From assembly GCF_029223255.1 (NCBI RefSeq), contig NZ_JARHUC010000001.1, forward strand, positions 310,001-374,000: a DNA stretch of 64,000 nt, in the 5' to 3' direction. This document shows, in pieces, positions 40,544-59,702 of this stretch. The notes under the pieces were generated by a model. The model worked only from the letters and a program-made list of their open reading frames with translations. It made no database searches and was not told where the DNA came from. Source of the stretch: Albimonas marina (GTDB taxonomy: Bacteria > Pseudomonadota > Alphaproteobacteria > Rhodobacterales > Rhodobacteraceae). A program made the position numbers and the translations under genes. Within the stretch, counting starts at the first letter, position 1, and each line of letters begins with the position of its first letter.

Positions 40544-41352
40544 GCGCCCGTCCCCGCGGGGGCGGCGCCCCGGCGCAGGCGCCGGTCGATCGCCAGCAGC
40601 CCCATGTTGGCCGCCACCGCGAAGACCGAGATCAGCACCGCCACGGCCAGGATCGTCTCGACGTCATGCAGGTCGATCGCCTTCATCAGCAGGAAGCCCA
40701 GCCCCCGCTGGGAGGCGAAGAGCTCCCCCAGCATCGAGCCGAGCAGGGTCAGCGAGAAGCCCAGCCGCAGGCCCGCGAAGACCTCCGGCAGGGCGGCGGG
40801 CAGCAGCACGTGGCGGGCCCGCTGGGCGGGGCTCAGCCGCAGGGCGCGGGCGGTGCGGATCTGCACCGCGGGGATGTTGCGCACCGCGTTCAGGGTGAAC
40901 AGCGCCACGGGGATGATCCCGTGGAAGGCGCCGAAGGCCACCTTGGCCTGCATCCCCAGCCCGAACAGCAGCAGGATCACCGGGTAGAGCGTGACCTTGG
41001 GGATGGAATAGAGCGTGACCAGCACCGGCTCCGCCGCCTCCCCCGCCAGCCGGCTGCCGCCGAGCCCCAGCCCGATCAGCACGCCGCCCATCCAGGCGAT
41101 CAGCAGCGCCTGGCCGAAGGCCATCGCGGTTTCGGCGAGATGCGGCAGGAAGCGGGCCTGGCCGACCATCTCGACCAGGTGCGCCAGCGTCGGCGCCGGC
41201 GCGGTGATCGCCACGTCGCCGGCCAACTCATGCGCCAGCTGCCACAGGACGAGGATCGCGACGGTCACCAGCGCGGGCCCTCGCAGGGCGACGAGCAGCG
41301 CGCGCCCGGGGCGCTCCCCCGCCGGCGCTGGGGGTTCGGCGACGGCGCTCAC
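40540..41352 (-). CDS. ABC transporter permease (SsuC/TauC type)
   Basis: The 270-residue inner-membrane protein has about six helices and the binding-protein-dependent permease domain. The loop that contacts the ATPase is seen as RHVLLPAALPEVFAGLRLGFSL, followed by MLGELFASQRGLGFLLM, typical of the nitrate/taurine/sulfonate subclass. It is next to a second permease with 4-bp overlap, so the importer uses two permease subunits or a heterodimer. Length is normal. Confidence 0.9.
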   Translation of the reverse strand: MSAVAEPPAPAGERPGRALLVALRGPALVTVAILVLWQLAHELAGDVAITAPAPTLAHLVEMVGQARFLPHLAETAMAFGQALLIAWMGGVLIGLGLGGSRLAGEAAEPVLVTLYSIPKVTLYPVILLLFGLGMQAKVAFGAFHGIIPVALFTLNAVRNIPAVQIRTARALRLSPAQRARHVLLPAALPEVFAGLRLGFSLTLLGSMLGELFASQRGLGFLLMKAIDLHDVETILAVAVLISVFAVAANMGLLAIDRRLRRGAAPAGTGA

Positions 41353-42098
41353 AGGCCCCTCCGTTTCAGCATCCGGCGCTCCCAGGCGAAGACGGTCATG
41401 TTGAAGGTCGTCACCAGCGCCAGCACGATCAGGATCAGCGCGTACATGCGCCGGTTGTTGAAGTTGTCGTAGGCGTAGGCGATCTCGTGCCCGATGCCCT
41501 CGGTCGACATGATGAACTCTCCGGCGATCACGCCGATGAAGGAATAGGCCACCGCCAGCTTCAGCCCCGACAGGATGTGCGGCGCGGCCGCGGGCAGGCG
41601 CACGCGCCAGATCTCCTCGACGAGCGACAGGCGGTGGACCCGCGCCGTGCGCGCCAGGACAGAGGGCACCCGGTCCAGCCCCGCCATGGTGGCGAGGATC
41701 ATCGCCACCATCGCGAACAGCGTCGCCAGCACGATCAGCGGCGTGCGCCCCAGCCCGAAGATCACGATCAGCAGCGGATAGAAGGCGATGTGCGGGATCG
41801 AGTAGTAGGAGGCGAGGAACGGCGACACCGCCCGGCGCAGCGGCGGCACGCGGGTCAGCGCGAAGCCCGTGCAGAACCCGCCCACGATCGCCACGACCAT
41901 GGCGATCGCCACCGCCTCGACGGTGACGCCGAAGTGGCGCCAGAACTCGGCGTCGCCCAGCGCCTCCACCGCGCCCGCGACCATGGCCGAGGGCGCGACC
42001 ACCATCGTCGGCGGGATCGCGCCCGTCCGGCAGGCGAGCTCCAGCCCGCCGACCGCGCCCGCCAGCACCACCGTGCGCAGGATCGCGGCCGGGGTCAT
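41349..42098 (-). CDS. ABC transporter permease (SsuC/TauC type), second subunit
   Basis: The start is placed at ATG 42098, giving 249 residues; longer readings run into the ATPase gene. It shows TM segments and the permease loop WRVRLPAAAPHILSGLKLAVAYSFIGVIAGEFIM followed by GIGHEIAYAYDNFNNRRMYA. It overlaps the ATPase gene upstream and the other permease downstream by 4 bp each. The two permeases are similar in class but not identical, so a heterodimeric channel is likely. Confidence 0.9.
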   Translation of the reverse strand: MTPAAILRTVVLAGAVGGLELACRTGAIPPTMVVAPSAMVAGAVEALGDAEFWRHFGVTVEAVAIAMVVAIVGGFCTGFALTRVPPLRRAVSPFLASYYSIPHIAFYPLLIVIFGLGRTPLIVLATLFAMVAMILATMAGLDRVPSVLARTARVHRLSLVEEIWRVRLPAAAPHILSGLKLAVAYSFIGVIAGEFIMSTEGIGHEIAYAYDNFNNRRMYALILIVLALVTTFNMTVFAWERRMLKRRGL

Positions 42099-42970
42099 CG
42101 CGCGAACCCCGCCGGCGCCTGCGCGCCCTGGCCCAGCGCGCGCAGGGACTCGCCGCGCAGGAGCGTCCACAGGCGCGAGGTGACGGCGCCGAACTCCGCC
42201 CGCTCGGCGAGGCTCGAATCCCGCTCCCGGTCCCAGCCGGTCTCGACCACCTCGATGAAGCGGCCGGGGCGGGCGGACATCACGCCGATGCGGTCCGACA
42301 GCAGGTTCGCCTCGTCCAGCGCATGGGTGATCAGCATCACCGTCGCGCCGGTCTCGCGCCACAGGCGCAGCAGCTCGTCGCCCATCAGCAGGCGGGTCTG
42401 CTGGTCCAGCGCGCCGAAGGGCTCGTCCAGCAGGATCAGGCGGGGCTGCATCACCAGGGTGCGCGCGATGCACACGCGCTGGCGCATGCCGCCCGACAGC
42501 TGGCTGGGATAGGCGCGGCGGAAGTCGCGCAGGCCCATGAAGCCCAGCGCGAAATCCACCCGCCGCCGGACCTCTCCCGCCTCGACCCCCTCGCGGCGCA
42601 GGCCGAAGGCGACATTGTCCTCGACCGACAGCCAGGGGAAGGAGGCGTCCTCCTGGAACACCACGCCCACCCCGTCGGGCACCCGGCCCGCGATGCGCGC
42701 GCCCTCGAACTCCACCGTCCCCTCTGTGGGGGGCGAGAGGCCGGCGAGCACGTCCAGCAGCGTGGACTTCCCGCAGCCCGAGGGGCCCACGACCGAGAAG
42801 AACTCGCCCTGGCGCAGATCCAGGTCGATCGGGCCCAGCGCATGAACGTCCGGCCCGCCGGAGCGGCCGGCATAGACCCGCGTCACCCCGCGCAGCCGGG
42901 CGTGCGCCGCCGCCGTCGCCCCCGCCTGCGGCGGGGGCGGGGCGACGTCGGCCAGGGCCGTGACGCTCAC
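42095..42970 (-). CDS. ABC transporter ATP-binding protein
   Basis: The GTG at 42970, overlapping the stop of the binding-protein gene (GTGA), gives 291 residues. It has Walker A in VVGPSGCGKSTLLDVLAGL, the signature SQLSGGMRQRVCIARTLVMQP, Walker B in LILLDEPFGALDQQTRL, and the H-loop LITHALDEANLLSD. This is the nitrate/sulfonate/taurine importer subclass. The first 40 residues form an extra Ala/Pro-rich leader. A reading from 43105 is longer but runs into the binding-protein gene and lacks similarity. Confidence 0.93.
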   Translation of the reverse strand: MSVTALADVAPPPPQAGATAAAHARLRGVTRVYAGRSGGPDVHALGPIDLDLRQGEFFSVVGPSGCGKSTLLDVLAGLSPPTEGTVEFEGARIAGRVPDGVGVVFQEDASFPWLSVEDNVAFGLRREGVEAGEVRRRVDFALGFMGLRDFRRAYPSQLSGGMRQRVCIARTLVMQPRLILLDEPFGALDQQTRLLMGDELLRLWRETGATVMLITHALDEANLLSDRIGVMSARPGRFIEVVETGWDRERDSSLAERAEFGAVTSRLWTLLRGESLRALGQGAQAPAGFAR

Positions 42971-43950
42971 TGGATCGCCTTTCCGTCGACGAAGCTCTCG
43001 TCGACGTAGCCGCTCCAGTCCAAGGGCAGCTCCACCAGGTCGACGGCGGCCATCATCTTGGCCATGCCGTCCATCGCCTCGTAGTCGAAGGCGCCCGGCT
43101 TCCACCAGTGATCGGTCATGCCGCGGATGTTGGATATGGCCGCGGCCACGATCTCCGGCTCCATCCCGTAGGCCTTGGCGATCAGCTGCGCCGCCTCCTC
43201 GGGGTGGTCGTAGATGAACTGCACGCCCTTGGCGCGGGCCGCGATGATGGCGCGGATGTCGTCGGGACGCTTGGCGAGCATGTCCTCGGTGACGATCCCC
43301 ACGGTCGAGGCCGAGTAGGGCACCAGCGCGTTCATCCAGGGCAGCTTCTGGTAGGCCGTGCCCTCCGCCGCCTTCTTGGCGAAGATCGGCTCGGGGATGA
43401 TCGCCACGTCGATCTCGTTCTGCTCCAGCGCCGTCAGCCCGGCCGAGAAGCCGCCGATGGCCACCATCTTCACGTCGTCCGGCGTCAGGCCGGCGTTGTC
43501 GACGATGCCCAGGAAGATCGCCTCGGACACCGACTTGGGCCGCGAGTAGACCAGCCGCTTGCCCTTCAGGTCCTCGACGTTCTCCAGCTTCTCGCCGTTG
43601 CGGGTGACCAGGTGGGCCGAGCTGCCCGAGGTTCCCATCATCACGATGCGGATCGGGAAGCCCTCCTTGATCGCCGAGACGGCGGCGGGCAGGGCGACTT
43701 CGGCGAAGGGCGTTTCGCCGGCCATCATGTTGCGCACCGAGGTGCCGCCGCCCTTCGAGGTGAGGATGCCGGTCACGTCGACGCCGGCCTCCTCGAAATA
43801 CCCCTTCTCCATCGCGATGGCGTAGGGCGCGCCGTACATCAGCGACCCGTAGTGGGTGACCACGATGTCCTCGGCCTGCGCGGGGCCCGCGGCGGTCAGC
43901 CCGGCCCAGGCCAGCGCCAGGGCGCCGGCCAGCGTTCTCGTCAGAGTCAT
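42967..43950 (-). CDS. ABC transporter substrate-binding protein, SsuA/THI5-like
   Basis: The ATG at 43950 gives 327 residues with a Sec signal peptide (LTRTLAGALALAWAGLTAAGPAQA, cleavage before EDI). The mature protein shows VVTHYGSLMYGAPYAIAMEKGYFEEAGVDVTG, KGGGTSVRNMMAGETPFAEVAL, LKGKRLVYSRPKSVSEA and a WWKPGAFDYEAMDGMAKMM region. It belongs to the NMT1/SsuA class that binds sulfonates, thiamine precursors, aromatic acids or other small acids. The ligand cannot be named. It is first in the block and next to the candidate operator. Confidence 0.9.
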   Translation of the reverse strand: MTLTRTLAGALALAWAGLTAAGPAQAEDIVVTHYGSLMYGAPYAIAMEKGYFEEAGVDVTGILTSKGGGTSVRNMMAGETPFAEVALPAAVSAIKEGFPIRIVMMGTSGSSAHLVTRNGEKLENVEDLKGKRLVYSRPKSVSEAIFLGIVDNAGLTPDDVKMVAIGGFSAGLTALEQNEIDVAIIPEPIFAKKAAEGTAYQKLPWMNALVPYSASTVGIVTEDMLAKRPDDIRAIIAARAKGVQFIYDHPEEAAQLIAKAYGMEPEIVAAAISNIRGMTDHWWKPGAFDYEAMDGMAKMMAAVDLVELPLDWSGYVDESFVDGKAIQ

Positions 43951-43994
43951 CGTCTCCTCCCTTGGAGCGTACGGTCGTGGCGTCGACCGAATCA

Positions 43995-44013
43995 TTATGT
44001 TGTTATGACATTA
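43995..44013. promoter_or_regulatory. AT-rich operator/promoter candidate of the importer block
   Basis: TTATGT and ACATTA (one mismatch from a perfect dyad) flank a 7-nt centre, within an unusually AT-rich stretch from 43990 to 44022. It lies 45 bp upstream of the binding-protein start. GntR/HutC regulators bind short AT-rich dyads, so it is a candidate site for the regulator in this operon. Confidence 0.45.
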
Positions 44014-44144: not shown

Positions 44145-45713
44145 TCAGCCCGCGACCGCGTCCCAGTCCAGCCCATGCCGCGCGAGGTACTTGCGCAGCC
44201 GATCCGCATCGTTGGTCGAGCTGCGCCGCGCGCGGGAGGCCGCGAACAGCCGCCGGCCGGCCTCGCTCAGGCTGGGCGCGCCGCGGCAGGCGCGGATCAC
44301 CTCGGCGAGCTGCACACGGTCGAACGGGTCGATCTCCGCCGCCGCCTCGCCCAGCACATCCGCCAGCAGGCGCAGGTCCGCATCCGGCGCGGCGCGGGCC
44401 CAGGTCGCGCGGAGGCGGGCGATCTCCTCCTCGACCAGCGCGCGGGTGACTCGGCCCCGCGGGGCCAGCGTCGACAGCCGCAGGACCGAGGCGCCGAAGT
44501 CCCGGAAGTTCCCCGGCCAGGGCGTGCCGGGATCGCGGGCGAAGCGCAGGAACGTGGCCCGCGCATCGGCGTTGAAGCCCACGCGCGCGCCCAGCGCCCG
44601 CTCGACCCGCGCAAGCTCGAAGGCGAGGTTCGGCTCGATGTCGTCGCGGCGGTCCCGCAGCGGCGGCAGGGTGAAGCGCCACAGGTCCAGCCGCGCGAGC
44701 AGGTCCGGTCGGAACCGGCCCTCGGCCACCAGCGAGGCGAGGTCGCGGTTCGCCCCCGCGATGACATGGAAGCGGCTGGTCGCGGGCTGGTCGGCGCCCA
44801 GCGGATAGAAGCTCCCCGTCTCGATCGCGTGCAGCAGCACCGCCTGCTCCCGCGGGCCCAGCTCGTCGATCTCGTCGAGGAAAAGCACCCCGCCGTTCGC
44901 CTCGCGCAGCAGGCCGTTGCGCTCGCCGGCCTGCGCGCCGCCCTGCCCGCGGCGCTGGCCGAACAGGGTCGAAAGCGCCGTCGCCTCCGACAGGGTCGCG
45001 CAGTTGATCTGCACGAACTTCCCCTTCACGCGCCGCCGCTCCCGCTTCAGCTCGTAGATCCGCCGGGCGAGCTCGGACTTGCCCGTCCCCGTCTCCCCCA
45101 GCAGCAGGATCGGCGCGTCGGAGCCGGTGGCGGCCAGCTCGATGCGGTCGATCAGCAGGTTGAAGGCGGGGTCGCGCGTCTCGATCCCGCCCTTGAGCTG
45201 GTCGGAATGCTCCCGCGCCAGCAGGTCGAACCGTTGCTGGAGTGCGTCGTAGCGGCTGAGGTCGAGGTCGATCACGGCCATCGAGCCCTCGGTCTCGGTC
45301 GCGCGCGGGGGCGAGGTCTGGATCAGGCGGGCGGGGACGTGCCGGCTCTCGGTCAGCAGGAACCAGCAGATCTGGGCGACATGGGTGCCGGTGGTGAGGT
45401 GGACGAAATAGCTCTCCCGATCCTCGTCGAAGCCGTAGCCGCGCGCGAAGTCGAACAGCTTCCCGTAGACCTCCTGGAAGTCCCAGGGATCGGCGAGGTC
45501 GAGACGCTGGAGCAGAACCTCGGTCTCGGGGGAGGCCGCCTCGATCTCGGCCTTCACCTGCACGGCGAGGCGGTTGTGGCGGTGGTCGTGCAGCAGTTCG
45601 ATGCGGTCGACCTCGAACCCCTCCTGCGCGATCAGGCTCGGCGTCGGGCGCCAGCGCCGCTTCTTGCCGGCGTCGAGCTGCGTGCCGAGGAACCCGAGGA
45701 CCACGTTGCGCAT
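44145..45713 (-). CDS. rtcR: RtcR-type CARF/AAA+ transcription activator
   Basis: RtcR controls the RNA-repair operon. The 522-residue protein has an N-terminal CARF-type ligand domain (MRNVVLGFLGTQLDAGKKRR, VHLTTGTHVAQICWFLLTES), which in relatives senses 2',3'-cyclic-phosphate-ended RNA or nucleotides. A AAA+ domain follows, with Walker A LLGETGTGKSELARRI and Walker B GGVLFLDEIDELG. A C-terminal region with a helix-turn-helix-like segment ends the protein. The usual GAFTGA loop that contacts sigma-54 is replaced by G-Q-G-G-A-Q at the aligned position (DNA near 44930-44945). It is divergent from rsr with a 178-bp gap. Confidence 0.92.
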   Translation of the reverse strand: MRNVVLGFLGTQLDAGKKRRWRPTPSLIAQEGFEVDRIELLHDHRHNRLAVQVKAEIEAASPETEVLLQRLDLADPWDFQEVYGKLFDFARGYGFDEDRESYFVHLTTGTHVAQICWFLLTESRHVPARLIQTSPPRATETEGSMAVIDLDLSRYDALQQRFDLLAREHSDQLKGGIETRDPAFNLLIDRIELAATGSDAPILLLGETGTGKSELARRIYELKRERRRVKGKFVQINCATLSEATALSTLFGQRRGQGGAQAGERNGLLREANGGVLFLDEIDELGPREQAVLLHAIETGSFYPLGADQPATSRFHVIAGANRDLASLVAEGRFRPDLLARLDLWRFTLPPLRDRRDDIEPNLAFELARVERALGARVGFNADARATFLRFARDPGTPWPGNFRDFGASVLRLSTLAPRGRVTRALVEEEIARLRATWARAAPDADLRLLADVLGEAAAEIDPFDRVQLAEVIRACRGAPSLSEAGRRLFAASRARRSSTNDADRLRKYLARHGLDWDAVAG

Positions 45714-45891
45714 GACGCCTTATCCCATTCGATAAATCCCTATCTCTCCGGATCGTAATCGCGCGCCGTCGAATCGGCAACGCTGCGAAATCCGTCTAAA
45801 AATCAACAGCATGTTCGGATTCCCGATTTTCCTCGGTCGCCCCGCCGCCCCATGCGACACCTCTCCCCGTCAACAGAAGGACGAGAGAGAA
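45714..45891. promoter_or_regulatory. rtcR-rsr divergent regulatory region
   Basis: The 178-bp gap is AT-richer than most of the window, especially 45720-45840. A GCCG-N6-CGGC dyad lies near 45765-45778. I looked for a sigma-54 -24/-12 element (GG-N10-GC with good flanks) on the plus strand and did not find a convincing one. The rsr start is preceded by AAGGACGAGAGAGAA. Confidence 0.5.
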
Positions 45892-47460
45892 ATGGCGAAC
45901 AGATCCGTGTTTGCCTCGACCAGAGGCCGGCTGTCCCCGAAGGCGGACGCCACGACCGCCCACGGGACGCCGGCCTATTCCTACGCCGCGCCCCACGCCC
46001 TGGCCCAGATGGCCGTGACCGGCAGCTTCGGGGGCGCCTACTACGCCAAGCCCGAGATGCAGCTCGACCGCGTGCTGTCGCTGGCTGGAGCCGTGGAGCC
46101 CGCGTTCCTGGCCCGCACGGCGATCCACGCGCGCCGGGTCGGGCGGATGAAGGACATGCCCGCGGTGCTGCTGGCGGTGCTGGCCTCCCGCGATCCGGCG
46201 CTGTTCCGCGCGGTCTTCGGGCGGGTGGTCGCCAACGGGCGGATGCTGCGCACGTTCGTGCAGATCCTCCGCTCGGGGCGCACCGGGCGGAAGTCGCTGG
46301 GCTCGGCCCCCAAGGCGATGGTGGCGGGGTGGCTGACCTCGGCCTCCGACCGCGCCCTGCTGGAGGCCGCGATCGGGACCTCGCCCTCGCTGAAGGACGT
46401 GATCCGCATGGTCCACCCCAAGCCCGACAGCCGGGAGCGGGAGGCGCTGTTCGCCTGGATCCTGGGCCGCCCGTGCGAGGCCGCGCGCCTGCCGCAGGCG
46501 GTGCGCGACTGGATCGCCTTCCAGGAGGCCGGGCCGCAGGCCTGGACCGGGCCGCTGCCGGAGGTGCCGTTCCAGATGCTGACCCAGGCGCCGCTGACGC
46601 AGGCGCAGTGGGCCGGGATCGCGCGGAACGGTTCCTGGCAGATGCTGCGCCAGGGGCTGAACATGCTGCTGCGCCACGGCGCCTTCGAGGATCCGGAGAC
46701 GGTCGCGGCCGTCGCCGCCCGCCTCTCAGACCCCGAGCGGATCGAGGCGGCGGGGGCCCTGCCCTACCAACTGCTCGCCGCGATCGGCCATGTCGATCCG
46801 CGGATGCCGGGCGAGATCGTCGAGGCGCTGCACCTCGCGATGGATCACGCCGTCCGCCGGGCGCCTGCGCTGGAGGGCGCGGTCGTGGTCTGCCCCGACG
46901 TCTCGGCCTCGATGCTCGGGTCGGTGACGGGGGTGCGCAAGGGCGCGACCTCGGCGATGCGCCACGTGGACTTGGCGGGCCTGGTCGCGGCGGCGATCCT
47001 GCGGCGCAATCCGCGGGCCGAGGTTCTGCCCTTCGCCCGGGCGCTCCGCCCGATCCGGCTGGAGCCGCGGGACACGGTCGCCAGCAACGCGCGGCGGCTG
47101 GCGGAGATCGCGGGCGGCGGCACCGATTGCTCGGCCCCGCTGCGGGCGCTGAACGCCCGCGGGGCGCGGCCGGACCTGGTGGTGATGATCTCGGACAACC
47201 AGTCCTGGATCGACGCCGCCCACGCCGGGCGCGGCACGGCGACGATGACCGAATGGCTGGCGCTGCGCGCCCGCCATCCCTCGGCGAAGCTCGTCTGCAT
47301 CGACATCGCCCCCTACGGGACGACGCAGGCGGCGGAGGTCGAGGGGGTGCTGAACGTCGGCGGCTTCTCCGACGCGGTGTTCGACCAGATCGGACGCTTC
47401 GCCCGGGGCGAGATGCACCCCGACCGCTGGATGGCCGAGATCGAGGCCATCGCGCTCTGA
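45892..47460 (+). CDS. rsr: Ro60-like TROVE-domain RNA-binding protein Rsr
   Basis: Rsr is the bacterial Ro60 orthologue, a ring-shaped protein that binds Y RNAs and misfolded RNAs and can direct exonucleases. The ATG at 45892 gives 522 residues. A HEAT-like ring domain (residues 30-345) includes TPAYSYAAPHALAQMAVTGSF and an NMLLRHGAF segment. A vWA domain follows with a complete metal site: D-V-S-A-S, a later GGTDCS, and ISDNQSW. It is divergent from rtcR and directly upstream of two Y-RNA-like genes and rtcB, matching the known rsr-Y RNA-rtcB arrangement of enteric bacteria. Confidence 0.93.
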   Translation: MANRSVFASTRGRLSPKADATTAHGTPAYSYAAPHALAQMAVTGSFGGAYYAKPEMQLDRVLSLAGAVEPAFLARTAIHARRVGRMKDMPAVLLAVLASRDPALFRAVFGRVVANGRMLRTFVQILRSGRTGRKSLGSAPKAMVAGWLTSASDRALLEAAIGTSPSLKDVIRMVHPKPDSREREALFAWILGRPCEAARLPQAVRDWIAFQEAGPQAWTGPLPEVPFQMLTQAPLTQAQWAGIARNGSWQMLRQGLNMLLRHGAFEDPETVAAVAARLSDPERIEAAGALPYQLLAAIGHVDPRMPGEIVEALHLAMDHAVRRAPALEGAVVVCPDVSASMLGSVTGVRKGATSAMRHVDLAGLVAAAILRRNPRAEVLPFARALRPIRLEPRDTVASNARRLAEIAGGGTDCSAPLRALNARGARPDLVVMISDNQSWIDAAHAGRGTATMTEWLALRARHPSAKLVCIDIAPYGTTQAAEVEGVLNVGGFSDAVFDQIGRFARGEMHPDRWMAEIEAIAL

Positions 47461-47465
47461 GACCA

Positions 47466-47490
47466 GCCCGGGCGGCGCGCCCGCCCGGGC
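47466..47490 (+). other. 10-bp stem-loop after rsr
   Basis: GCCCGGGCGG and CCGCCCGGGC form a perfect stem with a 5-nt loop, 6 bp past the rsr stop. No T-tract follows, so it is more likely a processing or stability hairpin, or a partial attenuator, that separates rsr mRNA from the Y RNA region. Confidence 0.6.
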
Positions 47491-47511: not shown

Positions 47512-47656
47512 GGCCTCGGCGAATGCCGCTGGAACTACAGTCATCACCTCGCGGGTTGCGGGTTCGAATCCCGCCGCGACGGCCCCCGGTCCCGACCGGG
47601 GCCTGCGCGTAGCTCAACGGTAGAGCAGCGGTTCCAGCACCCTCGTCGCCGAGGCC
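47512..47656 (+). ncRNA. yrlA: Y RNA (YrlA-like) with permuted tRNA mimic
   Basis: Ends pair in an 11-bp helix (47512-47522 with 47646-47656). Then come an internal loop (5' ATGCC, 3' ACCCTCG), an 8-bp helix (47528-47535 with 47631-47638), and a tRNA-like head. The head has a T-arm at 47558-47574 (GCGGG-TTCGAAT-CCCGC), a stem formed by 47575-47590 and 47595-47609 closed by a CCCG loop, then TA and a D-arm at 47612-47626 (GCTC-AACGGTA-GAGC). In a tRNA the D-arm comes first; here the order is T-arm, acceptor, D-arm, a circular permutation closed at the acceptor. Bacterial YrlA-type Y RNAs are known tRNA mimics that bind Rsr. Exact transcript ends are unknown. Confidence 0.85.
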
Positions 47657-47665
47657 TTTTCGACC

Positions 47666-47780
47666 GCCGGGAGGAATGCCTGCGGGACTACATTGGACGC
47701 CGGTCCGCCGGCTGCCGGTTCGAGCCCGGCTACGCCCCGTTTCGGGGCGGGAGAGTCCCGCACCCTCTTGTCCTCCCGGC
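47666..47780 (+). ncRNA. second Y RNA-like gene, reduced tRNA mimic
   Basis: The fold repeats that of the upstream RNA with different helix sequences: a 10-bp outer helix (47666-47675 with 47771-47780), the same 5' loop ATGCC with CCCTC on the 3' side, a 9-bp inner helix (47681-47689 with 47754-47762), a T-arm at 47714-47730 (GCCGG-TTCGAGC-CCGGC), and a 7-bp acceptor-like stem CGCCCCG/CGGGGCG (47733-47749) closed by TTT. No D-arm is present: only GGAG joins the acceptor stem to the inner helix. Conserved loops with covarying helices argue for a functional RNA bound by the same protein. It ends 37 bp before rtcB. Confidence 0.8.
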
Positions 47781-47817: not shown

Positions 47818-49236
47818 ATGACCGTCTCGACGGCCGCCCCGATCGCCGGCCCCATCACCGGAGAGGACCTGAAGGCCTGGGGCCACCGCCCCGGCCCGCA
47901 GTTCCCGATGCTGCTTGCCAGGGCCGAGAGCCTGCAGGCCGAGGGGCTCGACGCCGAGGCCCTGCGCGCCGCGCTGGAGGCCGAGAAGCCCACGCCCCCC
48001 GTGAAGATCGAGCCCCGCGCCCCCGGCGCGCTCCCCTTCCACGAGCTGCTGGAGCCGTGCGACCCGGACGAGATGGACAACCTCGCCAAGGTCCGCGAGA
48101 CGATGGTCGAGCTGATGCGCACCCCCACCCTCGAGGCCGGCGCGGTGATGCCCGACGCCTGCCCCGCGGGGCCGGTCGGCACGATCCCCGTGGGCGGCGT
48201 GGCCGCGGCGCGCAACGCGATCCATCCGGGCATGCACTCGGCCGACATCTGCTGCTCGCTGATGCTGACCGACCTCGGTCACGCGGACCCGGCGGCGGTG
48301 CTGGACGCAGCCCAGGCGATCACCCATTTCGGGCCCGGCGGACGGCCGCAGGGGCGGCGCTTCACCGTCTCGCTGAAGCTGCTGGACGCGTTCCGGGCGA
48401 ACCCGTTCCTCGACCACCCCAAGGCGATCGAGACGGCGCAGGCGCACATGGGCACGCAGGGCGACGGGAACCACTTCCTGTTCGTCGGCCGCTCCCGCGC
48501 CACGGGGCGCACGGCGATGGTCACCCACCACGGCTCCCGCGGGCCGGGGGCGCTGCTCTACAAGCACGGGATGAGCGTGGCCGAGCGGTTCCGCAAGCGG
48601 CTCTCGCCCGGCACGGCGAAGCAGAACGCCTGGATCCCGGCGGACACGCCGGAGGGCGAGGCCTACTGGGAGGCGTTGCAGCTGATCCGCAAGTGGACCA
48701 AGGCCAACCACAACGCCCTCCACCAGGCGGTGGTCGAGGCGGTGCGGGCCGAGCCGGGGGAGCGGTACTGGAACGAGCACAACTTCGTCTTCCGGCGGAA
48801 CGGGCTCTACCTGCACGGCAAGGGGGCGACGCCGGCCTGGGACGGCTACGCCGCCGACGCCACGGGGCGCACGCTGATCCCGCTGAACATGGCGGAGCCG
48901 GTGCTGGTGGTCCGCGGGCGCGACGACGGCCGGGGCCTGGGCTTCAGCCCGCACGGCGCCGGGCGCAACTTCTCGCGCTCCGAGCATCGTCGGCGGATGG
49001 CGGGGCGCACGGCCGAGGCGTTGCTGGCGGCCGAGACGCAGGGCCTCGACATCCGCTTCCACGCAGGCGGGGTCGACGTGTCGGAGCTGCCGTCGAGCTA
49101 CAAGTCGGCCGCGACCGTGACCGCCCAGATCGAGCGCTTCGGCCTGGCGGAGATCGAGGACTTCATCGATCCCGTCGGCTGCCTGATGGCCGGCGACCTG
49201 CCCCCGTTCCGCGGCGGCCGCAAGACCCGGCGCTGA
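47818..49236 (+). CDS. rtcB: RNA-splicing ligase RtcB
   Basis: RtcB joins RNA 2',3'-cyclic phosphate or 3'-phosphate ends to 5'-OH ends with GTP and Mn2+. The 472-residue protein shows the metal-site motif HSADICCSLM (Cys ligand), HMGTQGDGNHFLFVG, MVTHHGSRGPG, NHNALH, and the guanylation motif SPHGAGRNFSR with the nucleotidyl His. It is somewhat longer than the 400-residue E. coli enzyme because of an N-terminal extension of about 60-70 residues. An AAAGGAATGGAAAG site precedes the ATG. No rtcA cyclase follows; the next gene is convergent. Confidence 0.95.
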   Translation: MTVSTAAPIAGPITGEDLKAWGHRPGPQFPMLLARAESLQAEGLDAEALRAALEAEKPTPPVKIEPRAPGALPFHELLEPCDPDEMDNLAKVRETMVELMRTPTLEAGAVMPDACPAGPVGTIPVGGVAAARNAIHPGMHSADICCSLMLTDLGHADPAAVLDAAQAITHFGPGGRPQGRRFTVSLKLLDAFRANPFLDHPKAIETAQAHMGTQGDGNHFLFVGRSRATGRTAMVTHHGSRGPGALLYKHGMSVAERFRKRLSPGTAKQNAWIPADTPEGEAYWEALQLIRKWTKANHNALHQAVVEAVRAEPGERYWNEHNFVFRRNGLYLHGKGATPAWDGYAADATGRTLIPLNMAEPVLVVRGRDDGRGLGFSPHGAGRNFSRSEHRRRMAGRTAEALLAAETQGLDIRFHAGGVDVSELPSSYKSAATVTAQIERFGLAEIEDFIDPVGCLMAGDLPPFRGGRKTRR

Positions 49237-49315: not shown

Positions 49316-52300
49316 TCAGAAGCGGACGTTCACGCTCAGCCGGCCGGCTTGGCCGGCGTAGCCGTCGCCCGCCGCGCCCTCGTAGCTGACGCCCACGTCG
49401 GCGCGGTCCCCGACCTCCAGCGCGACCCCGAGGCCGAGGCGACCCACCGCCTGCGCCTGCGCCGCGCCGTTGGCGAAGCCGGCGATGCCGGTGGCGTCGC
49501 GGGCGAAGCGGACGTCGGCGTCGTAGGAGTCGAGGGTCGAGAAGCTGACCCCCGCCCGCGCCCAGGCCCGCAGGCCCAGCGGATCGCCGCCGCTCTCGCC
49601 CAGCTCCCGCCGCAGGCCCGCCTCCAGCGAGGGGGTCACGACGAAGGCCGTGGCGGCGGCGTCCGAGACGCGCAGCGCCTGCCGCCCCGCGCCGGTCTCG
49701 GTGAAGCCCTGCGAGGAGACGTGGATCAGGTCGAGGTCGAGCGAGGGCTTCAGCCACGCGCCCCCCTCCAGCGCCTGCGTCCAGGCCGCCCGCGCCCGCA
49801 GCCCGAGGCTGAGCGCCCCGTGCTCCGACCGCGCCTGGCCCGGCGCGAGCGGCCCGGCGAAGCGGCGGGAGTCGAACTCCGACCACCCCGCCGTGGCGGC
49901 GCCGCTCAGCGACAGCGCCCCCCTCTCCCGGGTCACCGCGGCGCCGAGGAAGCCGGTGGTCCCCTCGACCGAGCCGCCGCCGCCCTGGCGGGCGAGGTTC
50001 AGCGTCTCCCACCCGAGGGCGCCCGAGACCAGCCAGCCCGGCGCGACCTCCAGCGTCGTCGCGAAGCCCGCGGTCCAGGCGTCGCCCTCGTAGCCGGCCG
50101 CGGCCCCGCTGGCGTCCTGGTCCAGGTGGCGGCCCGAGCCCAGCAGGGTCAGGTAGCCGCCCAGGCCCCCGGTCTCCCAGTCGACGCTGCGCCCGCCGGT
50201 CTCTCCGCAGCCGAGCAGGGTGTCGAAGCGGTCGCGGGTCAGCTCGAAGGTCGCGGCCTCGCCCGCCATCGTGGCGCCCAGCGTGGCGCCCGACAGGGCC
50301 GAGCCCAGCGCCCCGCCCTGCGCCGCCAGCTCCAGCTTGCCGAACAGGCGGGCGAAGTCGCGGTCCCCGGTCAGGAACAGCCGCTCGAGGTAGCGGGCGG
50401 CCTCGGCCTCCTGCCCGCCGAGGCCCGAGGCGAGCTCGACCCCCGTCGCGCGGAGCGTCACGCCCCCGTTCTCGATGCGCTGCTCGAAGCGGAAGATCGC
50501 GCCGCCCAGCCGGTCGAAGGCGCCAAAGATGTCGCCTCCGACCTCCATCACCCGGTGCTCCGCGCCCCCGATCAGGGCCCGCGGCGCGAGGCTGAGCGCC
50601 CCGTCGAGCGTCGCGTCGCCCGCCACGCGGATCACGTCGCCCCGGCCCTTCAGGGGCTCGGCGTCGACCGCCAGCGTCCCGCTCGACCCCTGCTCGAAAT
50701 CGCCGGCGATGACGAGATCGGCATGGTCCCCGGGATCCCCCGCGACCAGCAGGCCGCGGTTCAGCACGTCGGCGTCGTAGCGCTCGGCCCCCCGCAGCAC
50801 GCCGCCGCGGCGGTTGACCAGGGTGATCGCCGGCGGCGGCGCCGGCCGGACCGCCAGAACCTCGGGCCCCGCGGCGAGGGACGCCGCCGCCCCGCCCGGC
50901 GTCCTGACGCCCCGCGGACCGAAGGCAGAGCCGTCGACCCCGCCCTCGACCCGTCCCTTCTTGAAGGAGACGTTTCCGTCGATGACGCCCGCGTTGCGGA
51001 TCGAGAGATGCGAGTCGTAGGGGTCGTTTCGGGTGATGTAGCGGATCGCCTCGCCCGACAGCGCCGTGATCGTTGCGCCCTGGAAGACGGTGATCGCGTT
51101 CTCCGCCCCGCCCCCATGCATCAGCAGGCCGTAGGCCGAGGGGCCCGAGCCGCCCTGCACGTAGCCGTTGATGAAGGCGTCGATCCAGACGTCCTGCATC
51201 CCCCGGCCGTTGGCGGCGCCCAGGCTCTGCAGGAACACCGCGGTGCTGTTGCGGCCGTTGGCGATCACCGCCGCCTCGGGCTGCATGATGAAGTCGATCG
51301 CGCCGCCGCGGCCGACGTCGCCGTTGGTGTTCAGCCCGGCGAAGGGGCCCTGGGCGTCGCCGCCCAGGCCCCCGCCGCCGCCCAGCGACTGGGCGATGAC
51401 GCCGTAGGCGCCGTCGCCGTAGGTGACCAGGGGCCGGTCCACGTTGACGCCGACATAGCCGGCGTCGCCCTCGCCGTTCATCTGCTCGATGGTGCTGGGG
51501 GCGTAGCCGACCGACCGGCTGTAGATCAGGGTCAGCCCGTCGGCGAGCGAGACGTCGCCGCCGATGCCGCCGCCGCCGGCGATGGACTGGGCCACGATGC
51601 CGTGGGCGCCCTCGCCATAGGTGGTCGCGCAGGTGTCGAGCGCAGTCAGCGAGCAGCCCTGCGGACCGCCGAGCGTGACGTCGACCGAGCCCGCGCCCGC
51701 CGTGCCGCGGTAGCCCTCGAGCCCGCCGAGCCGCACCTCCGAGACGCTCCCCGAGCCGGCCGAGGCGATGCCCCCGCCGCCCGAGATCGACTGGGCGACG
51801 ATGCCGATGGCCCGGTCGCCGACGGTCACGAGCCGACCGTAGAAGCCGACGTTCACGTCGTCGGCCCGGTCGGCGCCCTCGCCGCCCCGGCCGCCCAGCT
51901 GCAGCGTCACGTTCTTCTGCGCGCCGCCGATCCGCGCCACGCCGCCGCCGCCCGCGATGGACTGCGCCGCCAGCGCGTGGGCGTCGTCGCCCCGGGTGAC
52001 CACCCGGGCGAGGGAGCTGGTCTCGGCCCCGGTGGGACCTTCGCCGGCGTATTCCCGCAGGATCTGCGCCTTGCCCGCGCCGCGGTCGTCGTCGCCGGCG
52101 CTGGTCGCGCCCAGGGTCAGGACCGCGCCGTCGGCGGAGTGGCCGAAGCTCGCCGCCCCGCCGCCGCCGCCGATCGACTGCACCAGCACCCCGTAGGCGC
52201 CCGCGCCCTCGGTGTCGATCGAGCCGCCGCCCACGCCGCGCCCGGTGTGGGTCAGCGACGCCTTGCCGGCCCGGCCGCCGCCCTGGGTCTGGCCCAGGGT

Positions 52301-55300
52301 CAGCGACGCGCGCGGCCCGGCGCCTGCGCCGTCGCCGATGTCGGCGAGGCCGCCGCCGCCGGCGATGGACTGCACCACCAGCCCGTCGGCGTAGTCGCCC
52401 GAGGTGGCGATCCCGCCGCCGAAGGTCATCGCCACGTCGGCGTTCCAGCCGCCGGTGGCGCCGGTCGCGCCCAGCTGCACGGGCAGGACGCCGCCGCTCC
52501 AGCCGTCGCGGCCGTTAGGCGCCGAGGCCTGGCCGCCACCGCCCGAGATCGACTGCACCACCACGCCGCGCGCGGCGTCGCCCGCGGTCTGCACCCGCGT
52601 GGCCCCGGCCGGGTCCACGCCCATCTCGACCGCGACCGCGCCCCCGTAGGAGCTGCCGCCGCCCGAGGCGCCCAGCGTGACGCGCGACAGCCACGGGGCC
52701 GGCGTCAGCGCCAGCCCCCCGCCGCCGCCCACCGACTGCACCAGCGCCGCGGTCGACCCGGCGCCGCCGGTGACCAGGGTCGCCTCGCCGATGTCGAGGG
52801 TCAGGTCGCCCGGATCGGCGATCGCGTCGCCGTTGCGGTTCGCCTGGCCGGTGCCGTTGGAGCCGCCGAGACGCATCTCGACCACCCCCTCGCGGTTCGA
52901 GACCGCGAGCGGCTGCGAGGTTCCCAGCGCCCCGACGCCGCCGCCGCCCACCACGTTCTGCACCAGCAGGCCGATCGCGCCGTCGCCGCCGGTCTGGATC
53001 AGCGCGTCGTCGCCCATCGTGGCGCTCAGCGCCGCGGACCCGAAGGTCCCGCCGTAGTCGCCGCCGACCAGCAGGCCGGTCCGGCCGGAACCGGTGGTTG
53101 CGCGCACGGTCGTCGAGCCGACGGCCGCGATGCCGCCGCCGCCCTGGATCTCCTGGATCACCGCGCCGTTGGCGCCCCAGCCATTGGTGAAGAACGTGCT
53201 GCCCGAGAGCGTCACGTCCAGCCCCCCGGCCGCCGCGGTCTGGTCCACGCCCTGGACCTTCTGGCGGTCCGCCGCCCCGGCCGAGGTCGCGCCCGAGGCG
53301 CCGACCCGGATCGAGACCGAGGCCATGGAGTCCGAGGTCGGATCGTGGCTCAGCCCCGCGACCCCGCCGCCGCCGGAGATCGACTGCACGATCGCCGCCT
53401 CGGCATGGTCGCCCCAGGTGCGGATCCAGCCGCCCAGCTCGGTCACGACATGCAGGTTCTGCATCCCGATCTCGGGCGAGGACTGGCCGAGGTCGATGCG
53501 CATCTTGTAGGCGTTCGGGTCGGGCGTGTTGGCCGCCGGCTGCGGCGGGATCTTCTTGCCGTTCGCCTCGTCGAGCGTCCAGGACGCGCCGCCGGCGGAG
53601 CCGATCACGCCGCCCCCGCCGCCGATCGCCTGCACCACCACCGCGTCGGCGTCGGCGCCGTAGGTCTGGATGTCGCCGTCGGCCACGAAGCTCGCGGCCT
53701 CGGGGACCTCGTCGGGCGAGACGTTGGCGCCCAGGATCGAGATCTCGCGGGTGACCGTGGTGGACTCGCCCGCGCTCGCGCGCTCCAGCAGCTCGAAGCC
53801 GTTGGCGACGCCGCCGCCGGCCTGCACGCTCTGCGCCACGATCCCCCGCGCCCCCACGCCCAGCGTGGTGATGAAGGAGCCGTCGTCCAGGGAGACGTCG
53901 AACCGGTCGGCGCCGCCGCAGGGGATGTTCGGCAGGCAGCCGGAGGCCGAGCCCATCGTCACCACGCCGGAGGAGAGCGAGGTGGTCTGCGCCCGGTCGA
54001 TCTCGGCCGGGGTCAGCACGACCACGCCGCCGCCGACGCCGACCGACTGCACGATCGCCGCATAGCCGGCGTCGCCGCGGGTGGTGACGTCGTCCACGAG
54101 ATGCATCGTCGCGCCGCCCGCGTGCCCGGCCCCGTAGGTCTCGACGCCCGAGCCCAGCGTCAGCTCGAACAGCAGGTCCAGCGCGGCCTGCTCCGCGTTC
54201 TCGGGATCGTAGCGGCGCAGGGCCGAGCCGTAGGCGAGCGTCGACATCGTGGTGCCGCCGCCGCCCGCCACCGACTGCACGATCACGCCGGGGGAGGCGT
54301 AGCCGTTGGCGTTGATCTTGGTGCCGTGCTCGAGCCGCGCCGCGACCGGGCCCGCGTCGCCCTGGCCGCCGTCGGCGCCGTGACGCAGCAGGCGCGCGCC
54401 CTCGATGCCCGAGACGCCGCCGCCGCCGCCGACCGACTGCACGATCAGGCCCGGGCTGCGCACGCCGTTGGTGACGATGCGGAAGGCGCCCTGCGCCGCG
54501 GCCTCGCCGCCGTTCCCGCCGCGCCCGCCGTCGCCGCCGGCGATGAAGTCGAGATGCGCGCCCCGGAACAGGGCGTTGAAGTTGTCGACGAAGATCGTGC
54601 GGTCGTCGACGTCGAGATGCTTCAGCGACAGCTCGGCCGCGGTCAGCGGCGCCGTGCCGATGCCGCCCATGCCGCCGCCGCCGCCCACCGACTGCACCGT
54701 CAGGCCGAAGGCCGCGGCGCCGTTGGTGGTGATGCGCCCGCCCTCGCCGTTCGCCTCGGCGCGGGCGGCGTTCGCGCCCTCGCCGCCCTCGCCGGAGCCG
54801 CCGATGCCCAGGCGCACGGCCGCCGCAGGCAGCGCCTCGTCGCCGCGGTCGTAGAGCGAGGCGACGTCGAGCTCCTCGAACGCCGCGTCCTCGTTGGTCT
54901 GGGGCTCGCCGTCCTCCTCGGGGGCCTCGGTCTCGGCGTCGATCCCGAGGTTGCCGACCAGGCGGGAGGCGCTGCCGCCCATGCCGCCGCCGCCGCCGAT
55001 GGACTGCAGCAACACGCCATGCGCGCGGTCGCCGTAGGTCAGCACCTCGGCGTCCTCGCCCAGGCGGAAGCCGACCTGGCCGCCCTTGCCGCCCGCGCCG
55101 CCGGTGCCGCCGATGCGCAGGGACAGGTCGAGGAAGCCGATGGAGTCGTGGGGCACCGCGCCCCCGCCCACGCCGCCGCCGCCGCCGATGGACTGCAGCA
55201 CCACGCCGTCGGCGTAGTCGCCATGGGTGACCACCGCGCCGTCGAGCGTGGGCATCATGAAGCGCGTCGCGTCGCCGGACTCCACCTCGGTGGCCGCCAC

Positions 55301-58300
55301 CGCGAAGTCGCCGCCTGCGCCGCCCTCGCCGCCGCGGCCGCCCACGTTGACGTTCAGCGCCCAGGGCCGCTCGATCTGCTCCTTGATCTCCTGCAGCTCG
55401 AGGCCGAAGTCGATCACGTTCTTCTCGCCGTCCTCCTCGGCGCCGCCGCCGCCGAAGTTTCCGCCCAGGCCGCCGCCGCCGCCGACGCTCTGCAGCAGCA
55501 CGCCGTCGCCGTCGGCGCCGAAGGTCTCGATCACGCCGGCCAGGTTCGCCTCGGCGATGCGTCCGCCTTCGCCGCCGCCGCCGCCGGTCATGCCCACGCC
55601 CACCGTCAGGCGGGGCGCCTTGAGCTTGCCGTTCAGCTTCTGCAGCACCGCGTCCGTCAGCTTCGAGGTGAACGAGACCGACGCGGTCTGCGAGGCGCCG
55701 CCGCCGCCGCCCACGCCGTGCATCACCATCCCGCGCGCGCCCTCGCCATGGGTGCGCAGGTAGGTCTCGGCGCCCAGGTCGGCCGTCATGCGCCCGGCGT
55801 CGCTGGCGCCGTCGCCGCCGTAGCCGCCGATGTTGATCGCCATCTTCACGCCGACGCCTTCGCCGAACTTCTTGGTGCCCGCGCCCGCGACGCCGCCGTT
55901 GCCGCCGCCCTTGGCGATGCTCTGCGCCAGGATCGCGTTCGAGTTCGGACCCCAGGTCTCGATCGCCGTCGCGCCTTCCAGGCTCAGGTCGACGTCGCCG
56001 CCGGTGCCGCCGGCGCCGCCGTTGCCGCCCATCGAGATCGAGACGGAGGTGTTGACCTTCAGCGACTTGACGTTCGGCTCCTCCTCGCCCGGGATCGCCT
56101 CCTTCAGCCGGTCGATGAACAGCGAGGCCGCCGCCATCGAGGAGCCGTCGCCCCCGTCGCCGCCGCCGCCGCCGACGGACTGGGCCAGGATCCCGTGGCC
56201 GCCGTCGCCCCGCGTGGCGATGCTCACGTCCGTGAGGTCGAGCGAGACCGCCTTGCCCTCGCCGCCCTTGCCGCCCTTGCCGCCGACCGCCGCCGCGCCG
56301 GCGATGGCGACCTGCAGGTCGAAGGCCGGGATCGGCAGGTCGATCGCATAGGCCAGCGCGTCGGCCGAGCCGCCGAGGCCGCCGCCCCCGCCCACCGACT
56401 GCGCCACCAGGCCGTGGTTGTTCGACACCCCGTCCTTCAGCGCGTCGCCGCCCGTGGCGATGGAGACGTCGTCGAGGCTGATCTTCACCTCCCCGGCGTC
56501 GCCGCCTTCGCCGCCCTTGCCGCCGACCGCCACCGCGCTGCCGAAGCCCACGCTGACGTCGGTGGAGGTGGCCGCGCCGCCGGCGCCGCCCCCGCGCCCG
56601 ATGGAATGCGCGACCAGGCCGCGGGCGTGGCTGCCCCAGGTGGTCACGTCCAGCGCCTCGGCCGTGATGTCGACCTCGCCGCCCTCGCCCCCGGTCGAGC
56701 CGCCGCCGGCGATGGCCACCGAGGTCAGCGCGAAGACCCCGAAGGAGAGCGAGCGCGCGTCGCCCCCGGTGCCGCCGCCGCCGCCGATCGACTGCACCAG
56801 CGCGCCATGGGCGTTGTCGCCCTGGGTGAAGATGCTGTTGCGCAGGCCCTCGTCGCCCGCCTCGACCTCGAGCGTCACCTTGCCGCCGTCGCCGGTCGTT
56901 CCGCCGTCGCCGCCCACTGCCACGTTGGGCACGCGGGAGGCGATGGCGAACACGTCGCCGCCGTTGCCGCCGCCGCCGCCGATGGAATGCGCCAGCAGGC
57001 CGAAGGAATACTTGCCCCGGGTCTGGATGTTGGTTCCGGAGTGGAGCGTCGCGGTCACCGCGCCGCCCGCGCCGCCGCCGCCGCCCTGGCCGCCGACGGT
57101 GGCGACGCCCGCCGCCCCGCCCACGTCGATCACGTCGCCGCCGCCGCCGCCGATGGACTGCAGCACCGCGCCCGCCGAGGCGTCGGCCCTGGTCAGGATG
57201 CGGCCGCCGTCGCTCTCGAGCACGACCTCCCCGCCCGGGGTGCCGTCGCCGCCGGCGCCGGCCACCACCACGCCCTCGTCCGTGTCCGCGGTGACCCCGG
57301 CGCCGTCGGTGGTCAGCGACCCGCCGCCGCCCGCGATCGACTGCATCAGCAGCCCGTGGGAGCCGTAGCCGTCGGTGCGCACGTCGAAGCGGCCCGCGGC
57401 GCTGACCTTGCCCGCGGTCCCGCTGTTGCCGCCCTTGGTCTCGCCGGCGCTGAACAGCGAATACTCCGAGTCGGCCGACCCGCCGCCCCCCGCCAGCGAC
57501 TGCATCACGATGCCGATCGAACGGCCGTACTGGGTCGAGATCACCGGCGCGACGCCGTCCTCGCCCGTCGGCAGGACCAGGGTCACGTCGCCGGCATTGC
57601 CGCCGCGACCCGCCTCCGAGCCGTGGAAGTCGACCAGCCCGCCCGGCGTGCGCACGCCGCCGCCCGAGCCGCCCTTGGCGTGGATCATCACCCCCGCCGA
57701 GTTCGCCCCCTGGGTGACGATCGAGGCGCCCGAGCCCAGCACGACCTTCAGGTCGCCCGTGTCGCCGCCGCGCCCGCCGTTGGAGTTGGTGGAGTTGCCG
57801 AGCCCCCCCAGCGCCCCCTGGGCGTAGAGCGCCACGCCCATGATGTTGTTGCCGGCGACGTCGACCTGGGCCCCGTCGGCGAGCTTGATGCGCGAGGTCC
57901 CCAGGGCCCCGGTCTCCGGGTCTATGCCCGCGTCGCCGCCCTGGCCGCCGTCGGCCCGCGAGATCCCGTCCTTCGACGCGCCCCCGGCCGCGCCGTAGGT
58001 GGCGGCCAGGATGCCGGCGGACTGGTAGATGAAATAGGGGATCGCCTCGACCTGGCAGACCGCGCCTTCCAGGCAGGCGCGGTCGATCACCTCGTCCTCG
58101 GGCGTCGCGGCCGGGGCGGAGTCGCGGGTGCGCAGCTCGATGCGCCCGTCATGAGCAACGTCGACCCGGCCCGAGTCGCCGCCGTCGCCGCCGTCCACGC
58201 CGATCGACTTGGAGGTGATGCCGGCGTAGCCCGCCTGGCTCGCCGCGAAGATTCCGTAGGCGTGGCCGGTCCTGTCGACATAGGTGCGCAGCAGGATGTC

Positions 58301-59272: not shown

Positions 59273-59702
59273 GACGGCTTCCCCAAGCACCCAATCCACC
59301 CGACGGACCCCGCCGAGCCGCCGCGTGCGCCATCTCCCACCAGACATCGGGACGCGGTTCACGTTACGTTTATCGAGGTGAATTGGTTTGGCAAGCATAT
59401 GAAATGGAATGGCATACCAGAATCCACGCCGGCCCTTCCCGGCTTGGCCGGCGTCGGAGTCCGCGCTGCGCGAGAATGCGCGCCGCGGTCCGCCGAAGGT
59501 TCCTGCACGAAACCGAATCGCCGCCGCCGAGCTCGCTCCGGCGCTTCGCTCCGCCTTGGATTCGAGGGTTGCGCGCCGGCCTCGGCCCGGATCTCCGTAT
59601 TGCGTCCGGCCTCTCCGATACGATGCGCGGCCTGATCTCCCGGGCGCTCCGACGCCGGCGTCCCAGCCCGGGCGACGCGATGCGGCGCCGCCCGGGCGAC
59701 AT
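59273..59702. other. autotransporter upstream region
   Basis: This 430-bp gap has no gene I can support. On the minus strand TTGCCA (59394-59389) and TAAACG (59372-59367) are spaced by 16 bp, about 95 bp before the autotransporter start. This is a weak promoter candidate in an AT-richer stretch (59355-59415). The rest, to the SDR stop at 59703, is GC-rich without clear features. Confidence 0.45.

What the first reader, a model, noticed from the sequence alone, without database searches (positions are those of the whole stretch)
47512..47780. Two tandem Y RNA-like genes supported by covariation
Between rsr and rtcB two segments fold the same way although their helices differ. Copy 1 has an outer helix 47512-47522/47646-47656 and an inner helix 47528-47535/47631-47638. 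Copy 2 has 47666-47675/47771-47780 and 47681-47689/47754-47762. Both keep ATGCC in the 5' internal loop and CCCTC in the 3' internal loop, and each carries a T-arm (TTCGAAT or TTCGAGC loop). Different stems with the same loops is compensatory change, strong evidence for structured RNA. YrlA-type Y RNAs near rsr/rtcB are established in other bacteria; the twin arrangement here is read directly from this sequence.
Basis: partly seen in the sequence, partly recalled or inferred. Interest (0 to 1): 0.88.

Follow-up and report, generated by a model that had tools for sequence, protein, structure and literature searches.

The report
Two bacterial Y RNAs, reduced array
The stretch holds two small RNAs of the known bacterial Y RNA kind, one folded like a rearranged tRNA, between the genes for their partner protein and an RNA-repair enzyme; related bacteria carry longer arrays of such RNAs mixed with spare tRNA genes, which I did not find described.

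Summary
Confirmed. Every helix, loop and T-arm named is at the stated coordinates. Both copies match Rfam YrlA (67.5 and 37 bits). Tandem tRNA genes can also score 35-40 bits, so copy 2 rests on its covariation and context. Twin Y RNAs between rsr and rtcB are known (Salmonella rsr-yrlBA-rtcBA); the core finding is a new lineage of a known kind.

Three results go further. (1) Copy 1's distal domain is a circularly permuted tRNA: rotated, ARAGORN calls it a tRNA; shuffled controls never are. Copy 2 belongs to another class, with a T-arm but no D-arm. (2) The pair is the short end of an array. In 80 related loci the rsr-rtcB spacer mostly holds 2-8 Y RNAs of at least five classes, few reaching Rfam's threshold. 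In 42 it also holds co-oriented tRNA genes for Asn, Gln, Lys or Pro; those checked are extra copies. (3) RtcR here and in near relatives lacks an intact GAFTGA (sigma-54 contact) motif, and the -24/-12 promoter is missing; seven distant loci keep both.

Expression and Rsr binding are untested. Two key Y RNA papers could not be read, so novelty of the arrays is provisional.

The parts
44145..45713 (-). rtcR: CARF-type regulatory domain plus AAA+ domain; lacks the GAFTGA sigma-54 contact motif (reads LFGQRRGQGGAQAGER)
   Evidence: Pfam RtcR 246 bits and Sigma54_activat 136 bits; motif compared across 80 loci
45720..45735 (.). TTATC-CCATTC-GATAA inverted repeat beside the rtcR start; similar letters are conserved among relatives; candidate RtcR site (inference)
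   Evidence: sequence and comparison of rtcR-rsr spacers
45892..47460 (+). rsr: Ro60-type protein, 522 aa
   Evidence: Pfam vWA_Ro60 E 1e-12; PDB 2nvo Rsr E 3e-16
47466..47490 (+). perfect 10-bp G+C hairpin just after the rsr stop; in relatives a short Y RNA, or its bare outer stem, sits at this place
   Evidence: sequence; comparison with relatives
47512..47656 (+). Y RNA copy 1, canonical YrlA class
   Evidence: Rfam RF02553 67.5 bits; fold z -4.5; clusters with 113 other units
47558..47574 (+). copy 1 T-arm GCGGG-TTCGAAT-CCCGC
47575..47609 (+). copy 1 acceptor-like arm, closed by a loop
47612..47626 (+). copy 1 D-arm GCTC-AACGGTA-GAGC; with the T-arm and acceptor arm it makes a circularly permuted tRNA
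   Evidence: rotated domain called a tRNA by ARAGORN, shuffled controls 0
47666..47780 (+). Y RNA copy 2, a separate class (13 units including this one) with a T-arm but no D-arm
   Evidence: Rfam RF02553 37 bits; fold z -4.1; clustering; class covariation
47699..47712 (+). copy 2 first hairpin GCCGG-TCCG-CCGGC
47714..47730 (+). copy 2 T-arm GCCGG-TTCGAGC-CCGGC
47734..47748 (+). copy 2 third hairpin GCCCCG-TTT-CGGGGC where copy 1 has acceptor and D arms
47818..49236 (+). rtcB: RNA ligase, 472 aa; no RtcA family match exists anywhere in the genome
   Evidence: Pfam RtcB E 3e-35

Best explanation
The two segments are Ro60-associated (YrlA-type) Y RNAs, most likely transcribed as one unit with rsr and rtcB. 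Shown by sequence: each has the two-helix Y stem with conserved AATGC and CTTGTC-type internal loops, and a distal domain. Copy 1's distal domain is a circularly permuted tRNA (T-arm, closed acceptor arm, D-arm); copy 2's keeps only a T-arm among three hairpins. Inferred from work on Salmonella and Deinococcus: the Y stem binds the Rsr ring, and the tRNA-like head controls access to the ring or tethers a partner such as PNPase; damaged tRNAs ending in 2',3'-cyclic phosphate switch on RtcR, which turns on Rsr, Y RNAs and RtcB; RtcB reseals broken tRNAs. In this lineage RtcR probably acts without sigma-54, because it has lost GAFTGA and the promoter lacks a -24/-12 element (inference). The pair is a short version of longer Y RNA arrays that in relatives often carry accessory Asn, Gln, Lys or Pro tRNA genes.
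For: Rfam match for both copies; folds; protein identities; same gene order in relatives. Outer-stem pairing 99/96/91% at the variable positions 2, 5 and 6 against 53/45/45% when 3' arms are swapped between units, units chosen without regard to pairing. Copy-2 class: 9 pairs changed on both sides against 3.4 in shuffles, 0 of 500 as high, 0-2 when the helix is slid. Rotation test: 90 of 299 distal domains become ARAGORN tRNAs, including 80 of 111 of copy 1's class and copy 1 itself; 0 unrotated, 0 in five shuffled rounds. Published: RtcR binds tRNA 5' halves with 2',3'-cyclic phosphate and activates rsr-yrlBA-rtcBA (PMC7790460). GAFTGA/GSFTGA and a TGGCAC-N5-TTGC-like promoter occur together in L119, L123, L125 and L127-L130 and not in the Rhodobacterales and Acetobacteraceae loci; sigma-54 itself is present in the genome.
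Against: No expression or binding data. Neither copy reaches Rfam's gathering score, and copy 2 scores no higher than some tandem tRNA genes. Copy 2 lacks a D-arm, so its tRNA mimicry is partial. RtcA is absent from the genome, so the RtcA feedback described in Salmonella cannot apply. No promoter was identified for the operon. Two congeneric genomes lack rsr, so the system is dispensable.
Confidence: 0.88

Rival explanations
1. Copy 1 is a true Y RNA, but copy 2 is a decaying duplicate with no function of its own.
For: Lower Rfam score; no D-arm; the hairpin at 47466-47490 looks like a further collapsed unit at the place of a short Y RNA in relatives.
Against: Copy 2's 19 stem pairs are intact, its fold is as significant as copy 1's, and it belongs to a covarying class kept in several genera.
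Confidence: 0.08
2. The segments are tRNA genes or tRNA-derived remnants that the YrlA model picks up by cross-match.
For: The model scores tRNA genes at 29-40 bits, most of all tandem pairs; both copies have T-arms.
Against: ARAGORN finds no tRNA in the window; the Y-stem motif is absent from 750 kb of flanking DNA of relatives yet occurs 339 times in the spacers; copy 1 is tRNA-like only after rotation.
Confidence: 0.01
3. The distal domains are permuted tRNA precursors: the Y stem is removed and RtcB joins the ends into a working tRNA, as in the permuted tRNA genes known from algae and archaea.
For: Domains are permuted tRNAs and about 23 of the 90 rotated hits keep NCCA at the acceptor 3' end, about 1.4 expected (output); RtcB is the neighbouring gene.
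Against: Anticodon stems are poor or missing in most copies and the would-be anticodon varies; most copies have no CCA, nor has the window's copy 1; the Y stem covaries like a permanent part.
Confidence: 0.02
4. The stems are only processing or attenuation hairpins in the rsr-rtcB mRNA.
For: Position between two genes; a plain hairpin also follows rsr (47466-47490).
Against: Conserved internal-loop letters and tRNA-like domains are not needed for that; several different classes share the same stem.
Confidence: 0.03

Closest known systems
YrlA / YrlB Y RNAs of Salmonella rsr-yrlBA-rtcBA
   Same: Two tandem Y RNAs between rsr and rtcB, an RtcR regulator, a tRNA-like domain in YrlA (PMC7790460, PMC4987338)
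   Different: No rtcA in operon or genome; RtcR lacks GAFTGA and no sigma-54 promoter is seen; relatives of the window have up to about eight Y RNAs and tRNA genes in the spacer
Rfam RF02553 YrlA
   Same: Both copies align over the full model
   Different: Both are below the gathering score; copy 2 lacks a D-arm; in ten related loci only 13 of 58-65 units reach that score
Deinococcus radiodurans Rsr and its Y RNA with PNPase
   Same: Rsr homologue (2nvo, E 3e-16) beside Y RNA genes; suggested gate or tether role
   Different: Contact with PNPase not testable here; distant sequence
Phage-encoded tRNAs against host anticodon nucleases (PMC10264068)
   Same: Extra tRNA genes, sometimes kept with an RNA ligase; a model for the accessory tRNAs in the relatives' arrays
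   Different: Chromosomal repair operon, not phage; anticodon loops look ordinary; no tRNA gene in the window's own operon

Membership tests
YrlA-type bacterial Y RNA (copy 1) | Two-helix Y stem with conserved internal loops, supported by covariation | tested here: met
YrlA-type bacterial Y RNA (copy 1) | tRNA-like distal domain (T-arm, D-arm, acceptor-like arm) | tested here: met
   ARAGORN after rotation; shuffled controls 0
YrlA-type bacterial Y RNA (copy 1) | Reaches the Rfam RF02553 gathering score | tested here: inconclusive
   67.5 against 69 bits, E 3e-14; gathering scan of the window lists nothing
Bacterial Y RNA (copy 2) | Two-helix Y stem with conserved internal loops, supported by covariation | tested here: met
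YrlA-type tRNA mimic (copy 2) | Complete tRNA-like distal domain | tested here: not met
   T-arm present, D-arm absent, no ARAGORN hit after rotation; filed as a Y RNA, not as a YrlA tRNA mimic
Bacterial Y RNA (both) | Gene beside a Ro60/Rsr gene | tested here: met
Bacterial Y RNA (both) | Expressed and bound to Rsr | not testable with these tools
   needs RNA and pull-down data
RtcR-controlled sigma-54 RNA repair operon | rtcR divergent from an operon with rtcB | tested here: met
RtcR-controlled sigma-54 RNA repair operon | GAFTGA motif in RtcR and a -24/-12 promoter | tested here: not met
RtcR-controlled sigma-54 RNA repair operon | rtcA present | tested here: not met
   no RTC match in the whole genome

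The most novel reading that the evidence does not exclude
In Rhodobacterales the Ro60 - Y RNA - RtcB operon is a combined tRNA-rescue unit: arrays of several distinct Y RNA classes, some of them permuted tRNA mimics acting as decoys or adaptors, are co-expressed with spare Asn, Gln, Lys or Pro tRNAs that replace cleaved ones, under an RtcR that has switched away from sigma-54. The window holds a reduced form with two Y RNAs and no tRNA gene.
Probability: 0.3. Interest if true: 0.75.

Novelty: new variant of a known kind. Interest (0 to 1): 0.5.

Why it matters
What Y RNAs do in bacteria is still open. That the distal domain is a swappable module, that one locus can hold several classes, and that accessory tRNAs of only four amino acids travel with them, makes the question why Y RNAs imitate tRNA directly testable in terms of tRNA damage and repair. 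The joint loss of GAFTGA and the sigma-54 promoter is a natural experiment in rewiring an enhancer-dependent activator.

Tried and rejected
tRNA gene reading: ARAGORN finds none in the window. Rfam score as sufficient proof for copy 2: rejected, because hits without rsr nearby proved to be tRNA genes, single or tandem, at 29-40 bits. Sigma-54 promoter upstream of the window's rsr: none within 3 mismatches, best has 5. The first motif script printed no RtcR motifs and was redone by alignment. The careful tree did not finish; the quick tree was used, and the window's Rsr sits there on a long branch of unsure place. Papers on Y RNA diversity (RNA 2014; Annu Rev Microbiol 2020) and RNA repair systems (NAR 2016) are not held; searches for tRNA genes inside Y RNA/rtcB operons found no report. 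One annotation-only paper query failed on its term format and was not repeated.

Full report
Observation. The sequence was read directly. The folds are far more stable than shuffles (z -4.5 and -4.1). The Y-stem motif occurs only at these two places on either strand of the window.

Identity. Rfam's YrlA model is the best match for both segments: 67.5 bits (E 3e-14) and 37 bits (E 2e-5), with a gathering score of 69. The same model also hits tRNA genes: family hits that I followed up were tRNA-Asp genes at 29-30 bits and tandem Lys, Gly or Arg tRNA pairs at 35-40 bits (G130, G129, G114, G059). A tandem pair offers T-arm, then acceptor, then D-arm, the same order as in YrlA. Copy 2's score alone is therefore not proof; its stem, loops, place and class are. 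The neighbours are a Ro60 homologue (Pfam vWA_Ro60; PDB 2nvo, E 3e-16), RtcB and a divergent RtcR. RtcA is absent from the genome.

Covariation. Among 257 units picked by motif without regard to pairing, the variable outer-stem positions 2, 5 and 6 pair in 99, 96 and 91% of units, against 53, 45 and 45% when 3' arms are exchanged between units. Inner stems pair at 6.8 of 7 positions against 5.8 with swapped arms. For copy 2's own class (11 of its 13 units aligned), 9 of 19 pairs have changes on both sides against 3.4 in shuffles (0 of 500 as high) and 0-2 in slid versions.

Distal domains. Joining the ends of each distal domain and asking ARAGORN for a tRNA across the joint gives 90 hits in 299, none unrotated and none in five rounds of shuffled domains. 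Copy 1 and 80 of 111 members of its class are hits, as are 6 of 11 of a class that resembles a tRNA-Leu opened in the D-loop. About 23 of the 90 hits retain NCCA at the acceptor 3' end (counted from the printed sequences); about 1.4 are expected by chance. The anticodons ARAGORN prints span an artificial joint and mean nothing. tRNA mimicry by YrlA is known; this shows the permutation directly and suggests, as inference, that such domains arose at the junction of tandem tRNA genes. Copy 2 gave no hit.

Array. A search with an Rsr alignment gave 80 named loci, mostly Rhodobacterales, with some Acetobacteraceae and a few from other groups. The order rtcR / rsr - spacer - rtcB recurs. Counted by motif, the spacers hold 1-8 Y RNAs, most often 4. 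Clustering gives copy 1's class (114 units), copy 2's class (13), the Leu-like class (11), a large class with a T-arm and a second long arm (51) and short ones without a tRNA part (76, more than one kind). In ten loci 13 of 58-65 units reach Rfam's threshold. The window has two units and no tRNA gene.

tRNA genes. 42 of the 80 spacers contain tRNA genes for Asn-GUU (23), Gln-UUG (16), Lys-UUU/CUU (13) or Pro-UGG/CGG (11), 63 in all, every one on the operon strand, nearly all with encoded CCA. One Asp call that overlaps a Y RNA and one call without clear identity are left out. Rfam's tRNA model confirms them in the ten loci scanned. Where checked they are extra copies: G168, G171 and G003 have another tRNA-Asn-like gene of different body (by anticodon-arm pattern), and G163 another tRNA-Gln. 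Presence or absence changes 14, 7, 9 and 7 times on the Rsr tree for Asn, Lys, Gln and Pro (quick tree). Their anticodon loops look ordinary, which fits replacement better than nuclease resistance. This concerns relatives, not the window; replacement of cleaved tRNAs is inference, by analogy with phage tRNAs (PMC10264068).

Regulation. In seven loci (L119, L123, L125, L127-L130) RtcR has GAFTGA or GSFTGA, and a TGGCAC-N5-TTGC-like promoter with at most two mismatches lies 34-106 bases before rsr. The Rhodobacterales and Acetobacteraceae RtcRs, including the window's, have varied sequences in place of the motif, and no such promoter is placed consistently; L100 and L115 have isolated two-mismatch matches, L121 has GAITGA without a promoter, and L095 and L096 did not cover the motif. 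GAFTGA mediates contact with sigma-54 (PMC4987338). Sigma-54 is present in the genome. I infer sigma-54-independent activation, as recalled for Rhodobacter capsulatus NtrC (from memory, not checked).

Mechanism. In Salmonella, RtcR binds 5' tRNA halves ending in 2',3'-cyclic phosphate and activates rsr-yrlBA-rtcBA (PMC7790460). I expect the same signal here, with Rsr-Y RNA complexes and RtcB acting on damaged tRNA. Expression, Rsr binding and partner proteins are inferred, not shown.

Novelty. Twin Y RNAs in an rsr-rtcB operon are established, so the window's core is a new lineage of a known kind. Copy 2's class, the multi-class arrays, the tRNA genes and the RtcR change make it a variant. My searches found no description of them, but two main papers on Y RNA diversity could not be read, so this is provisional. 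The 80 loci are the nearest Rsr relatives, not a random sample; in a survey of 198 family genomes ten had a match above Rfam's cut-off, and with G000 and G171 twelve had a confident one at an rsr locus; two congeners lack rsr.

Noticed in passing
window 44145-45713 (-); L119, L123, L125, L127-L130: The RtcR GAFTGA motif and the sigma-54 promoter are missing together in the window, Rhodobacterales and Acetobacteraceae and kept together in seven other loci.
   Followed up: partly
L059, L062, L086, L089, L106 and others, rsr-rtcB spacer: Accessory tRNA genes limited to Asn, Gln, Lys and Pro lie among the Y RNAs, all on the operon strand.
   Followed up: partly
window 47466-47490; L048 hairpin after rsr: A bare hairpin follows rsr where relatives have a short Y RNA with the same outer-stem letters (L048 against L042), as if the inside had been deleted.
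   Followed up: no
L073, L078, L079, L082, L091 spacers: Some Y RNAs appear to hold a whole tRNA opened in the D-loop, anticodon arm included, a different entry point from canonical YrlA.
   Followed up: partly
L020, L021, L022, L023: Rfam's YrlA model scores tandem tRNA gene pairs at 35-40 bits, because T-arm, acceptor and next D-arm come in YrlA order; a false-positive source, and perhaps a hint of origin.
   Followed up: partly
window 49316-59398 (-): Open frame of 3360 codons, Gly/Asp-rich repeats with an autotransporter-like C-terminus, next to rtcB.
   Followed up: no
window 41349-43995 (-): Genes resembling an ABC uptake system (permease, ATPase, substrate-binding protein) beyond rtcR.
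   Followed up: no
L038/L080, L071, L086, L088 spacers: Long spacers contain further sequence, possibly open frames, between the Y array and rtcB.
   Followed up: no
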